Of a stretch of 34,346 nt of DNA, positions 10,304-30,739 are shown in pieces. Position numbers and translations under genes: made by a program. Position 1 is the stretch's first letter. Each line of letters starts with the position of its first letter. The notes beneath the pieces were generated by a model. That model was given only the letters and a program-made list of their open reading frames with translations, did not search any database and was not told where the DNA came from. Origin of the DNA: an uncultured Bacillota bacterium (GTDB taxonomy: Bacteria > Bacillota_I > Bacilli_A > ML615J-28 > CAG-313); assembly GCA_946611195.1 (NCBI GenBank), contig CAMODB010000009.1, positions 1-34,346 of the forward strand. The letters are read 5' to 3'.

Positions 10304-12979
10304 ATGAAAAAAACAATAATTAGAAACTTTGTTTTAGTATTAATATTGATATCTACTCTGTTATTAATTTGTACTTTTTCTTATTCATATATAAGTAATC
10401 AAATTATTAATGATAATATCAATAACAATTTAAAAAAGATTGTCGGTACGACAACAACAAGTATCGAACAACAATTTCAAATTGACCATAATCGACTAAA
10501 AACAAAAATTGATACTTATACAAAAGATGAAAATACTAGTGATAATTTAACAAGAGTAAAAAATAAGATTGCGATTGTTGAAAGTCACAAAGATGAATTA
10601 CTATATGGTTCTTCTAGTGGTATTGGTGGCTATGTTGAAGATAGTGTTAAGGGTGATTATTTCTTAATTAATGGGAAGAAATATCAAGACCAAAATTCAG
10701 CTGACCATAACCAAGAAAAAGAATATGATGTAATTATTGCTGATTTAGGTAAAGATTTTAAAGTAGAAACTGGTCAAACTAATGATTTTACTGGTGCTGA
10801 TTCAATCTATATCGTTTATCAATTAGGTGATATCATTGTTTATTTTAAAGCTTCTGATACTTTTAATGCGATATTCGTTGATGAAAAAATCATTGATGAT
10901 TATTATTTAATTAATCTTGATGGTGGTATTCGTTATACAACAAGTAAAAAAGGAAAACTACTTTTCTATGATTTATTAATTGATGAAGGAAATTCAAAAG
11001 AAACTAAAGATATTTTAATCTATGAACCAATTGAAAATATATCGAAGGATAATCCTTACGCAATTGTTAATAATATTAAATATAATAATAAAACATCATG
11101 GATGCTTGCAAGTAGTTTAACTACTGATGAAATTAGTAATAATTTATATTTAGTTTTAATTATTGATAATGAATCAGCTGTATCAAGTTTAAGAACGGTG
11201 TTTGCACCACTTCTTGCAACATTCTTCTTAGTACTTATTATTGTTGCTATTGCTTTAGTTATTTCTTATTATATTATTGGTAAGAAACATAATGATTTAA
11301 CAAATATTACGAATCGTAAATATGGTAAACCAGTTTATGAAATTAAACTTCGTACTGATGGTACTATTATTAATTTTGATGCTAATTTCAAAGAATTACT
11401 TAAAGATATTAAAGAATATCAAAAATTTTCGGATTTTGAATTCGTAGAAGATTATGATGATATATCTTCAGCTCTCTTTAAACAATTACCATTTACAATT
11501 AAACTTGCAAAAGAAAAAAATAATAAAGATAAAGATTTAATCTTCCGTTGTTCAATTTTAAAAGAATTTAATCACTATATTGCGATATGTCTTGATTCAA
11601 CATCTATTGAAGAAAAAAATGATAAATATCGTACTATCGCAACCATTAATCCAACTACTGGTGATCCTAATATGGAAGTGTTTAAAGAAGATATTGTTAA
11701 ATCTATTTACAATATTAAAACGGAAAAAACAATCTTTAAAACATCTTTATTATATGTTCATTTAATTAATTATCAAAATTTAGGTTTATTCTATGGTAAA
11801 AAGATTGGTGAACAAATTCAAAGATTAATTAACCAAAGATTAAAAGAAATCTGTGAAGGCTTAGAAACTAAATTATATACATTAGCACCTGATTCTACAG
11901 GTATTATCTTATCAAATCTTGATACTTATGAAGAAGCTAATGATTTAGCTAAAAAGATTGAAAAAGATATTAAGAAACCAATCGAATTTGGTGAAAACCG
12001 TATTATCTTAGAAGCCTCTATCGCAATATATAATCTAGATCCCGATGTTTATACTTTAAATGACGCAGGCGTCATTGTTGATGGACTTGAAAGATTATCC
12101 GGTAGAATGAATCAAAATGCTACTAAAAAAATTGATATCTTCACCCCATCTGTTGAAAAATATATTTCTAACGAAGAAGCTTTCGAAGAAGATTTAAAAA
12201 CAGCTGTTTTAAATAATGAATTTGTTATGTATTTACAACCACAATATAATATCTTCGAACATCGTATTCAATCTTTTGAATTATTAATTCGTTGGAATAA
12301 TCCAAAATATATAAGAGAATCACCTCAACACTTTATTGAAGTTGCGGAAAAGAATGGTTTAATCATTCAAATTGGACGTTTCGTTAATGAAGAAAGTTTA
12401 AGAATTGCGAAAGAATTAGAAAAATATGATCTAGAATTCTCTTTAAACGTTTCTCCTGCTCAATTTATTCAAACCGGTTTCGTATCCGAATTAATTGATT
12501 TAGTTAATAAATATGAAGTAGATCCTAATAAGATAAGTCTAGAAGTAACAGAAACTTTCCTTATGGAAAATCTTACTGTTATGAGTGAAAAACTAAAAGA
12601 ATTAAAGCGTTATGGTTTTAAAATTCACTTAGATGACTTTGGTGTTGGTCACTCTTCACTTTTATATCTAAAAGAATTACCAGTTGATGCGTTAAAGATT
12701 GATAAAGAATTTACAAGATTTATTTCATCTGATAAATTTAGTCGTAATACTATTAGATTTATTACTAACCTTGCCCGTAACCTTGAATTAGGTATTATTT
12801 GTGAAGGTGTCGAAGATGAAAAACAATTGAACTTCCTTGCAAGAAACGAATGTAGCTTGATACAAGGATATATCTTAAGTCCACCTGTACCAATTGATGA
12901 AGCTATCGAATTAATCGATGAATATAATATTAAAAAGACCAAAATAATTAATGATGATAAAAAAGAAAAGAGAAGATAA
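10304..12979 (+). CDS. Membrane-bound degenerate-GGDEF / EAL protein, predicted c-di-GMP phosphodiesterase
   Basis: Two TM segments around an extracytoplasmic region. GGDEF site replaced by LAPDSTGIIL. EAL residues retained: FELLIRW, LNVSPAQF, EVTET, LDDFGVGHSS, ALKIDKEF, EGVE, QGYILS. Confidence 0.9.
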   Translation: MKKTIIRNFVLVLILISTLLLICTFSYSYISNQIINDNINNNLKKIVGTTTTSIEQQFQIDHNRLKTKIDTYTKDENTSDNLTRVKNKIAIVESHKDELLYGSSSGIGGYVEDSVKGDYFLINGKKYQDQNSADHNQEKEYDVIIADLGKDFKVETGQTNDFTGADSIYIVYQLGDIIVYFKASDTFNAIFVDEKIIDDYYLINLDGGIRYTTSKKGKLLFYDLLIDEGNSKETKDILIYEPIENISKDNPYAIVNNIKYNNKTSWMLASSLTTDEISNNLYLVLIIDNESAVSSLRTVFAPLLATFFLVLIIVAIALVISYYIIGKKHNDLTNITNRKYGKPVYEIKLRTDGTIINFDANFKELLKDIKEYQKFSDFEFVEDYDDISSALFKQLPFTIKLAKEKNNKDKDLIFRCSILKEFNHYIAICLDSTSIEEKNDKYRTIATINPTTGDPNMEVFKEDIVKSIYNIKTEKTIFKTSLLYVHLINYQNLGLFYGKKIGEQIQRLINQRLKEICEGLETKLYTLAPDSTGIILSNLDTYEEANDLAKKIEKDIKKPIEFGENRIILEASIAIYNLDPDVYTLNDAGVIVDGLERLSGRMNQNATKKIDIFTPSVEKYISNEEAFEEDLKTAVLNNEFVMYLQPQYNIFEHRIQSFELLIRWNNPKYIRESPQHFIEVAEKNGLIIQIGRFVNEESLRIAKELEKYDLEFSLNVSPAQFIQTGFVSELIDLVNKYEVDPNKISLEVTETFLMENLTVMSEKLKELKRYGFKIHLDDFGVGHSSLLYLKELPVDALKIDKEFTRFISSDKFSRNTIRFITNLARNLELGIICEGVEDEKQLNFLARNECSLIQGYILSPPVPIDEAIELIDEYNIKKTKIINDDKKEKRR

Positions 12980-13040
12980 AAAAGTATTTTCTTTTTAAAA
13001 CATTTGATTATATGATAAACTAATGAAGAGGTAATATTCT

Positions 13041-29323: not shown

Positions 29324-29389
29324 TTATTGAGTATATTTTAATAAAAAGGAAAGAATATTTGATATAATTTAATAAAGAAAGAAAATAAT

Positions 29390-30739
29390 ATGAAAAGTAA
29401 AAGAGATTTATACAGTTATGATGATATAGTATATGAACAAGCCGAAATCAGCGGAAATAAGTTTAATTTACTATATAGTTTTGCGATGATAATACTCTCC
29501 GTGGGAGTTGTATTATTGACGGTTTTAAAAGTATTTCGTGTTTCAATTACTATTGTTTTACCAATTTCTATTTTGGCAATGATTCTTTTTATTCTTCCCT
29601 TTTTCATTCTTATTTTTCATGATAAGATTATAAAAAAGAATCCTTCCCTCCTTAAATGGTGGCGTTATAAATATGTAATTTATGTCTTTACTTATTTTGG
29701 TCTTCTGGCTATTGATTTAACATTTTCTTTTCATGCGGTGATCTTAATTGTTATACCACCATTAATGGCCGCCCAATATCGATTCATTAAACGAGACTGG
29801 ATTATCATCTTTATCACAACAATTATTACAATACCATTAGTTTTATATGGAAGTATCTTAATAGGTATTCCTGATTTGAATATCTTTAAGAATATGATTG
29901 AACCAGATAAATTAAATGATTTTTCTTCCCGCTTAAGTATATTGACAACAAAAAGATGTTTTGAAATCTTTATTCATTATTGCCTACCTAGAATTCTTGC
30001 GGTAATAGCTATCGATTTCTTAATAGCAGAAATCGTAAAGCGTAACCGCGAAATGCTTGACAAACAAGCTGAATTAAATAAGAAAATCAATCTACAAATG
30101 AAAAAGAGTAATGACTTACAAAATGCAGTCATTGAAGAATTAGCATCAGTTATCGAATCAAGAGATATTAATACCGGTGCTCATGTAAGAAGAACAAAGA
30201 AATATGTAGAAATCTTATGTAATGAAATGATGAAGAATGATAAATATAAAGATATCATGACACCTGATTTAGCCCATAAGATTATTTCTGCTTCTCCTTT
30301 ACATGATATAGGCAAAATAGCAGTATCAGATTTAATATTACTAAAACCGGGAAAATTAACGCCAGAAGAATTTAATAAAATGAAAATTCATACCATTAAA
30401 GGTGGTGAATTAATCGAAGATTTCTTTAAACAATTTGAAGATGATTCTTTCTTAAAAGAAGCTTATGAAATAGCTTTATATCATCATGAAAAATGGGATG
30501 GAACTGGTTATCCAGATGGACTTAAAGAAAAACAAATTCCTTTAGTTGCCCGGATAATGGCAATAGCTGATGTCTATGATGCTTTAACAAGTAAAAGAGT
30601 CTATAAAGAACCCTACACTAAAGAAGAAGCATATAACATAATAATTGCTGGTACTGGTAATCATTTTGATCCCGACTTAGTAGAAATCTTTAAAAAAGTA
30701 AGAAACGAATTTGAAGAAGTAATTAATTTAAAATTATAG
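29390..30739 (+). CDS. Membrane-bound HD-GYP domain protein, predicted c-di-GMP phosphodiesterase
   Basis: Multiple N-terminal TMs; SRDINTGAHVRRTKKY, SPLHDIGKIAVSD, ALYHHEKWDGTGYPDGLK, ARIMAIADVYDALTSKRVYK. Confidence 0.95.
   Translation: MKSKRDLYSYDDIVYEQAEISGNKFNLLYSFAMIILSVGVVLLTVLKVFRVSITIVLPISILAMILFILPFFILIFHDKIIKKNPSLLKWWRYKYVIYVFTYFGLLAIDLTFSFHAVILIVIPPLMAAQYRFIKRDWIIIFITTIITIPLVLYGSILIGIPDLNIFKNMIEPDKLNDFSSRLSILTTKRCFEIFIHYCLPRILAVIAIDFLIAEIVKRNREMLDKQAELNKKINLQMKKSNDLQNAVIEELASVIESRDINTGAHVRRTKKYVEILCNEMMKNDKYKDIMTPDLAHKIISASPLHDIGKIAVSDLILLKPGKLTPEEFNKMKIHTIKGGELIEDFFKQFEDDSFLKEAYEIALYHHEKWDGTGYPDGLKEKQIPLVARIMAIADVYDALTSKRVYKEPYTKEEAYNIIIAGTGNHFDPDLVEIFKKVRNEFEEVINLKL

What the first reader, a model, noticed from the sequence alone, without database searches (positions are those of the whole stretch)
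10304..30739. Candidate system: riboswitch-controlled SipW-type fibre/adhesin locus with its own phosphodiesterases and an McrB-like ATPase pair
One same-strand stretch holds two EAL-type proteins, two GEMM-I riboswitches, five secreted proteins (four with TasA/camelysin-like signal regions), two Ser/His signal peptidases, an McrB-like ATPase with DUF2357-like partner, and an HD-GYP protein. In established systems SipW processes TasA/TapA, and GEMM-I riboswitches sense c-di-GMP. The inference is a self-contained surface-matrix system gated by a cyclic dinucleotide, with an ATPase module not part of known TasA operons.
Basis: partly seen in the sequence, partly recalled or inferred. Interest (0 to 1): 0.9.

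Follow-up and report, generated by a model that had tools for sequence, protein, structure and literature searches.

The report
c-di-GMP-switched surface-fibre locus with McrBC-like motor
A conserved gene cluster in many small-genome Bacilli, including the wall-less Acholeplasma hippikon, appears to build a surface filament only when a signalling nucleotide is abundant, and it carries a membrane-anchored relative of a DNA-restriction motor that has no detectable nuclease and is probably reused to assemble or hold the filament.

Summary
Window 10304-30739 holds, on one strand, two GGDEF-EAL proteins, two c-di-GMP-I riboswitches, five secreted proteins, two Ser/His SipW-type peptidases, an McrB-like AAA ATPase with a DUF2357 partner, and an HD-GYP protein. 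In 66 loci around ATPase homologues from at least 11 families of the class, DUF2357 is the next gene in 63, a SipW-type peptidase is adjacent in 60, and TasA/camelysin-signal or S1 proteins are nearby in 56. All 65 distinct riboswitches in the homologous loci lie directly before one of these secreted proteins or SipW. Each window riboswitch has a consensus promoter and a terminator whose 5' arm is the aptamer's 3' strand, so both are predicted ON switches. EAL1 keeps its catalytic residues; EAL2 has conserved loss of one. The ATPase is membrane-anchored, and its McrC-like partner has no detectable nuclease. HD-GYP is not part of the conserved module (2 of 66 loci). The ATPase/DUF2357/peptidase core fits 'CoCoPALM', named in one passage of a 2024 paper. 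The c-di-GMP wiring, SipW cargo, EAL pair and a giant-adhesin variant look unreported. What the motor does is inferred.

The parts
10304..12979 (+). EAL1: membrane protein with two hydrophobic segments (about residues 5 and 303), degenerate GGDEF, catalytically intact EAL phosphodiesterase
   Evidence: Pfam EAL 2e-61; residues E,N,E,D,D,K,E,Q intact here and in nearly all homologues; hydropathy
13041..14879 (+). EAL2: TM + degenerate GGDEF + degenerate EAL (DDFG to DGFA), predicted c-di-GMP receptor or inactive PDE
   Evidence: Pfam EAL 1e-52; second Asp of DDFG replaced in most homologues across families
14909..14937 (+). promoter 1, TTGACA-17-TATAAT with TG extension, 12/12 match
14947..15027 (+). 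c-di-GMP-I (GEMM-I) riboswitch aptamer 1, with A at the specificity position (Vc2 position 20)
   Evidence: RF01051 59.4 bits; alignment A5
15014..15062 (+). terminator 1; its 5' arm is the aptamer 3' strand AGCCAGTTGTCA, predicted ON switch
15083..15853 (+). S1: secreted protein without the AWF motif, sharing the C-terminal W-EG-D motif of S2/S3; first gene after the riboswitch in most homologous loci
15870..16826 (+). S2: secreted subunit, STFAWF signal region
16923..17834 (+). S3: secreted subunit, STFAWF signal region, predicted beta-sandwich
17965..17993 (+). promoter 2, TTGACA-17-TATAAT, 12/12 match
18013..18088 (+). c-di-GMP-I riboswitch aptamer 2, with G at the specificity position
   Evidence: RF01051 65.3 bits
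18075..18111 (+). terminator 2 overlapping the aptamer 3' strand, predicted ON switch
18134..19066 (+). S4: secreted protein, ITFGWF signal region
19077..23984 (+). BIG: about 1635-aa secreted protein, GFGWF signal region, relatives in L034 and L048; candidate adhesin
   Evidence: no Pfam domain
24106..24915 (+). SipW1: Ser/His signal peptidase (S65, H120, GD 140-141)
   Evidence: NF046067 4e-17, TIGR02228 4e-16; conserved residues
24953..26515 (+). Membrane-anchored McrB-like AAA+ NTPase: TM about 61-79, coiled coil, AAA+ with NxD motif N361-R-D363
26525..28666 (+). DUF2357 (McrC N-terminal-like) protein with about 210-residue helix/coiled coil and no detectable nuclease domain
   Evidence: PF09823 6e-11; only DUF2357 recurs in 40 homologues; model
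28638..29282 (+). SipW2: Ser/His signal peptidase (S59, H99)
   Evidence: TIGR02228 2e-21

Best explanation
This is a c-di-GMP-gated surface-filament (or matrix/adhesin) system. When cyclic dinucleotide rises, two riboswitches stop forming their terminators and turn on two transcription units: S1-S2-S3, and S4-BIG-SipW1-AAA-DUF2357-SipW2. The secreted proteins leave by Sec and are cut by the SipW-type peptidases within the TFA|WF region; the mature subunits then polymerise or coat the surface. The AAA protein, fixed in the membrane by an N-terminal TM helix and coiled coil, forms a ring that its DUF2357 partner docks on and activates, as McrC does with McrB. With no detectable nuclease, the pair works on the envelope, ordering, driving or anchoring filament assembly rather than cutting nucleic acid. 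EAL1 lowers c-di-GMP in answer to an outside cue, and the degenerate EAL2 reads c-di-GMP at the membrane, giving a second, protein-level gate. Shown by sequence: gene content, conserved synteny, riboswitches with promoters and overlapping terminators, Ser/His and NxD motifs, TM anchor, active/degenerate EAL pattern. Inferred: ON direction, cleavage site, polymerisation, motor role, EAL2 as receptor.
For: Synteny: 66 ATPase loci, DUF2357 next in 63, SipW-type adjacent in 60, S-proteins in 56, riboswitch in 35 (maps). Genome level: 79 of 100 ATPase-carrying genomes have RF01051 versus 47 of 298 others, Fisher p 1e-30; in 8 near-closed genomes 11 of 17 listed riboswitches lie within 10 kb of the ATPase versus 0.35 expected. 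Every riboswitch in homologous loci precedes S1, an aromatic-motif secreted protein, an S4 relative or SipW. Terminator 5' arm equals aptamer 3' strand in 27 of 65 riboswitches, shuffled control 0.2%, the arrangement of the pilM ON switch (PMC9262584). EAL residue patterns. TM in 69 of 70 ATPases, almost none in DUF2357 proteins. A derived ATPase lineage serves a giant Cadherin-like, TM-anchored adhesin instead of SipW cargo, so surface adhesin, not nucleic acid, is the common factor.
Against: TasA/camelysin Pfam model matches only 1 of 55 S2/S3 homologues, at E 0.042; fold search ranks a TasA fibre 7th, at low TM 0.25/0.30. How a cytosolic AAA ring acts on Sec-exported subunits is unexplained. 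PADLOC lists the ATPase as a phage-defence candidate, PDC-M26A. About a fifth of ATPase genomes lack RF01051. 38 of 65 riboswitches did not pass the strict terminator test. No expression, binding or imaging data exist here.
Confidence: 0.72

Rival explanations
1. Anti-phage defence: the McrB-like ATPase and DUF2357 protein are a type IV restriction or CoCoNuT-type defence module that happens to sit with surface genes, or that uses secreted proteins to block phage adsorption.
For: Homology to McrB and DUF2357; PADLOC PDC-M26A matches all 36 ATPases scanned, best 5e-46; CoCoNuT relatives are predicted defence systems.
Against: No nuclease domain recurs in 40 DUF2357 homologues. The ATPase is TM-anchored, stays next to SipW and secreted proteins across at least 11 families, and sits under c-di-GMP riboswitches. 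No effector nuclease or methyltransferase appears as a recurrent neighbour among the families searched; other neighbours were not annotated.
Confidence: 0.12
2. Retention/release control rather than assembly: EAL2 and the AAA/DUF2357 complex act like an inside-out switch (as LapD does in Pseudomonas) that holds or sheds an already secreted adhesin according to c-di-GMP.
For: EAL2 has TM + degenerate GGDEF-EAL architecture; in the derived variant a fully degenerate GGDEF-EAL gene lies between the giant TM-anchored adhesin and the AAA gene.
Against: No LapG-type protease or HAMP/periplasmic output domain was noted; loci in families f11 and f18 mostly lack EAL genes but keep AAA, DUF2357 and SipW.
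Confidence: 0.3
3. The secreted proteins form a non-fibrous coat, S-layer-like matrix or secreted enzyme set; 'fibre' is a wrong analogy although secretion through SipW is right.
For: No sequence or confident fold match to TasA/CalY; S1 and BIG have no known domains.
Against: S2/S3 paralogues repeat 2-5 times in many loci and the S3 model is rich in beta strands; adhesin and pilin folds dominate the weak fold hits, TasA fibre 8aur_A having the highest probability in the 50 rows shown (0.54).
Confidence: 0.3

Closest known systems
[quoted passage not shown] 2024, PMC11090510
   Same: NxD-motif McrB-like ATPase with TM and coiled coil, DUF2357 partner with coiled coil, adjacent signal peptidase family proteins
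   Different: The paper names it in one passage and defers description. The passages read do not mention c-di-GMP riboswitches, TasA-type signal regions, an EAL pair, wall-less hosts or the giant-adhesin variant; its supplements were not read.
tapA-sipW-tasA / CalY matrix fibre operons of Bacillus
   Same: Dedicated SipW-type peptidase next to secreted proteins with aromatic residues after the signal cleavage region
   Different: No ATPase/DUF2357 pair, no GEMM-I control (own knowledge); two peptidases here; subunits not recognised by the camelysin model
E. coli McrBC
   Same: AAA domain aligns to McrB; DUF2357 as in McrC
   Different: Membrane-anchored, NxD instead of NxxD, no recognised DNA-binding domain, no detectable nuclease
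Geobacter pilM GEMM-Ib riboswitch
   Same: ON switch in which the terminator captures the aptamer strand; controls surface structures
   Different: Different clade and genes; most switches here carry G, not A, at the specificity position (56 G, 9 A)
Lap system (LapD receptor, LapA adhesin) of Pseudomonas
   Same: Membrane-bound degenerate GGDEF-EAL protein beside a large surface adhesin
   Different: No LapG-like protease or HAMP relay seen; ATPase pair instead (own knowledge for LapD)

Membership tests
CoCoPALM | NxD signature motif in McrB-like domain | tested here: met
   N361-R-D363-D; matched in 64 of 71 homologues by strict pattern, three more read N-N-D
CoCoPALM | N-terminal TM and coiled coil on the ATPase (FtsB-like) | tested here: met
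   TM in 69 of 70; homology to FtsB itself not tested
CoCoPALM | Adjacent DUF2357 partner with coiled coil | tested here: met
   63 of 66 loci; helix 472-683 in model
CoCoPALM | Associated signal peptidase family protein | tested here: met
   60 of 66 loci
CoCoPALM | Placement in the published CoCoPALM clade of the McrB tree | not tested
TasA/CalY (Peptidase_M73) | Match to PF12389 | tested here: not met
   1 of 55 at E 0.042
TasA/CalY (Peptidase_M73) | TasA jelly-roll fold | tested here: inconclusive
   model pLDDT 69; 8aur_A rank 7, prob 0.54, TM 0.25/0.30
TasA/CalY (Peptidase_M73) | SipW-type signal region with aromatic residue at P2' | tested here: met
   STFAWF in S2/S3; A28 invariant, W29 nearly so; P2' Phe rule from PMC10269814 (abstract)
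SipW-type (S26B) signal peptidase | Ser/His catalytic pair | tested here: met
   S65/H120 and S59/H99 conserved
McrBC restriction system | PD-(D/E)xK nuclease on the McrC homologue | tested here: not met
   no nuclease family in 40 members; fold search uninformative
McrBC restriction system | DNA-binding domain fused to McrB | tested here: not met
   N-terminus is TM plus coiled coil, no other Pfam domain
c-di-GMP-I riboswitch | Sequence/structure model match | tested here: met
   65.3 and 59.4 bits, cut-off 35
c-di-GMP-I riboswitch | G at the ligand-selecting position (20 in Vc2) | tested here: inconclusive
   G in aptamer 2, A in aptamer 1; A20 gives cGAMP selectivity in Geobacter, A20G gives c-di-GMP (PMC6456294); position mapped by own alignment reasoning
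LapD-type c-di-GMP receptor | Degenerate GGDEF-EAL that binds c-di-GMP | not testable with these tools
   degeneracy shown; binding needs an assay

The most novel reading that the evidence does not exclude
A restriction-type McrB/McrC motor has been converted into a membrane-anchored machine that assembles, exports or holds surface filaments and giant adhesins, under two-layer cyclic-dinucleotide control (riboswitch plus degenerate EAL receptor). It would be a new kind of bacterial surface-assembly system conserved across Bacilli, including wall-less mollicutes.
Probability: 0.45. Interest if true: 0.9.

Novelty: new variant of a known kind. Interest (0 to 1): 0.74.

Why it matters
CoCoPALM has been a name without a function. 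This evidence ties it to a regulated cargo (SipW-processed secreted proteins), a signal (c-di-GMP or cGAMP) and a second cargo type (giant Cadherin-like adhesins). It argues that a family tagged as candidate phage defence (PADLOC PDC-M26A) is a surface-assembly module. It also puts a cyclic-dinucleotide surface programme in wall-less Acholeplasma hippikon, where the genome's single c-di-GMP-I riboswitch match sits at this locus, so the idea can be tested in a cultured organism.

Tried and rejected
Chance neighbourhood: rejected by synteny and proximity counts. HD-GYP, aquaporin and downstream genes as parts: not conserved (HD-GYP in 2 of 66 loci). TasA membership by Pfam, NCBIfam and PDB profile: no support. 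S1 by PDB profile: nothing. Structure of the DUF2357 protein: confident core but no PDB fold match, McrC included, so this neither shows nor excludes the McrC fold. Genome-contig scan for named relatives gave only three loci. The locus with a 600-aa ATPase beside SipW in G003, G006, G012 and G013 (L052-L055) is a distant relative on a long branch, with no riboswitch, and was not followed. The first multi-locus Rfam search was too large and was replaced by a custom model.
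Full report
OBSERVATION. Two details are refined. S1 and BIG probably begin at internal ATGs (15083 and 19077), and the second peptidase gene overlaps the end of the DUF2357 gene. Both RF01051 hits score well over the gathering cut-off (59.4 and 65.3 against 35 bits) and are the only two in the 982-kb, 65%-complete assembly.

TRANSCRIPTION UNITS. Each aptamer follows a consensus sigma-70 promoter, TTGACA-17-TATAAT, 12 of 12 positions (14909 and 17965). An AT-rich stem with a T run follows S3 (about 17850-17888, seen). 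The locus therefore reads as EAL1-EAL2; then switch 1 - S1-S2-S3; then switch 2 - S4-BIG-SipW1-AAA-DUF2357-SipW2. After each aptamer comes a terminator whose 5' arm starts exactly at the aptamer's 3' strand, AGCCAGTTG. Aptamer folding and the terminator are then mutually exclusive, as described for the pilM ON switch (PMC9262584). By a strict test, 27 of 65 riboswitches in the window and homologous loci have this overlap, against 0.2% with shuffled downstream sequence. The predicted direction is ON with ligand. This is sequence inference, not measurement.

LIGAND. The base in the pocket that separates c-di-GMP from cGAMP switches is G in aptamer 2 but A in aptamer 1 (over the homologous loci 56 G and 9 A; one T falls in a truncated copy and one C is real). 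In Geobacter the A form is cGAMP-selective and A-to-G makes it c-di-GMP-selective (PMC6456294). I matched this column to Vc2 position 20 by the paired-column pattern, not from a structure, so the ligand of switch 1 should be called open. The assembly encodes intact GGEEF and GGDEF proteins on other contigs, so c-di-GMP synthesis is plausible. No cyclase with an intact motif lies in the locus.

CONSERVATION. ATPase homologues at E<=0.001 occur in 143 of 398 genomes sampled from the class; 100 have a strong match (E below about 1e-118). I read 66 loci. DUF2357 is the next gene in 63, a SipW-type peptidase is adjacent in 60, S1 or aromatic-motif secreted proteins are nearby in 56, and a riboswitch is in 35, although many contigs are truncated. 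The usual order is EAL1-EAL2-[riboswitch]-S1-S2/S3 copies-SipW1-AAA-DUF2357-SipW2-more secreted proteins. It spans at least 11 families. One locus, L103, is Acholeplasma hippikon by identity of its ATPase to the named protein P0037. Loci were chosen by ATPase match, mostly at 40% identity or more, so the fractions describe close relatives. The SipW, S and DUF2357 profiles were built from the first set of loci, most of them in the window's own order.

RIBOSWITCH LINK. RF01051 occurs in 79 of 100 strong-ATPase genomes and 47 of the other 298 (Fisher p 1e-30; not corrected for phylogeny). Proximity is independent of that: in eight near-closed genomes 11 of 17 listed riboswitches lie within 10 kb of the ATPase, against 0.35 expected. 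A model built from the locus aptamers found 69 copies in the window and loci. Of 67 outside the window (65 distinct, because L108 and L109 overlap), each is directly upstream of S1 (45 rows), another secreted protein with an aromatic signal motif, an S4 relative, or SipW1. The tree of the ATPase needs only two changes of the riboswitch label, rows without a label not counted, so the link looks old.

ATPASE AND PARTNER. Profile comparison with solved structures returns only McrB (E 9e-7). Walker A, Walker B and an N-x-D motif are invariant in the aligned set. The NxD form defines a branch of McrB relatives in Bell et al. 2024 (PMC11090510), who name a CoCoPALM group with TM and coiled coil on the ATPase and nearby signal peptidases, deferred to later work. 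Those features are met here; placement in their tree was not tested. A hydrophobic N-terminal segment is present in 69 of 70 ATPases and essentially absent from DUF2357 proteins. No nuclease family recurs in 40 DUF2357 homologues. The model of the window's DUF2357 protein has a confident core and a helix of about 210 residues but no PDB fold match.

SUBSTRATES. S2 and S3 belong to one diverse family with an invariant Ala in the AWF motif and a C-terminal W-EG motif that S1 shares. Pfam's camelysin model reaches only 1 of 55 members, at E 0.042. The S3 model (pLDDT 69) gives weak hits dominated by adhesins, pilins and other beta-sandwiches; the TasA fibre 8aur_A is 7th, with probability 0.54 and TM 0.25/0.30. 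I therefore say 'works like' TasA-type cargo and do not file it as TasA.

EAL PAIR. EAL1 keeps all eight catalytic positions in nearly all homologues. EAL2 replaces the second Asp of DDFG, usually with Gly, from the window to A. hippikon and others. This fits an active phosphodiesterase beside a degenerate receptor. Binding is not shown.

GIANT-ADHESIN VARIANT. In L104 (A. hippikon again), L118, L120 and L129 the ATPase and DUF2357 genes follow a giant secreted, TM-anchored protein (2613 aa with nine Cadherin-like stretches in L104; the other three are cut by the locus edge) and a fully degenerate GGDEF-EAL protein, with no SipW and no riboswitch found in the locus. Its ATPase is nested inside the SipW-linked clade (100/98 support). 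The common partner of the ATPase is thus a surface adhesin and a GGDEF-EAL protein, which speaks for an envelope role and against a nucleic-acid role.

CELL WALL. Eight of eight near-closed carriers tested, A. hippikon included, have no penicillin-binding transpeptidase domain, while G003, G004, G018 and G029 do. The window's own 65% assembly has none found, which is not conclusive. The system therefore occurs in apparently wall-less and walled lineages.

VERDICT. Real, conserved and regulated. The core was named before; the signalling, cargo and variant were not found in the searched literature. Confidence is high that it is a c-di-GMP-linked SipW surface system, moderate that the ATPase is its assembly or anchoring motor.

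Noticed in passing
L104:23-12466, L118, L120, L129: SipW-less variant: giant Cadherin-like TM-anchored adhesin, fully degenerate GGDEF-EAL protein, AAA and DUF2357; its ATPase derives from the SipW-linked clade.
   Followed up: partly
window 14947-15027: Aptamer 1 has A at the base that gives cGAMP selectivity in GEMM-Ib switches, while aptamer 2 in the same locus has G; nine A-type copies in the homologous loci.
   Followed up: partly
L052-L055 (G006, G013, G012, G003): A distant 600-aa ATPase beside a SipW-like gene and a conserved run of 419/249/530/815-aa proteins, without riboswitch; looks like a separate related system.
   Followed up: no
window 24953-26515: PADLOC would flag this family as phage-defence candidate PDC-M26A (all 36 members scanned); the context argues for a surface system, so such calls may be false positives.
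   Followed up: partly
L111:5426-5877, L106:14184-14507, L043:6219-6643: Tandem arrays of three or four GEMM-I aptamers in front of S1.
   Followed up: no
window 3521-3768: L31-Firmicutes leader (3521-3552) directly before a 69-aa rpmE-like ORF (3559-3768); ordinary autoregulation.
   Followed up: yes
L107, L108: Second SipW-AAA locus in tandem in G194 and G147 in which no DUF2357 gene is recognised after the AAA gene.
   Followed up: no
window 32874-34136: AAA_14/DUF4143 ATPase downstream; a relative (1e-54) lies near the locus in L037.
   Followed up: no
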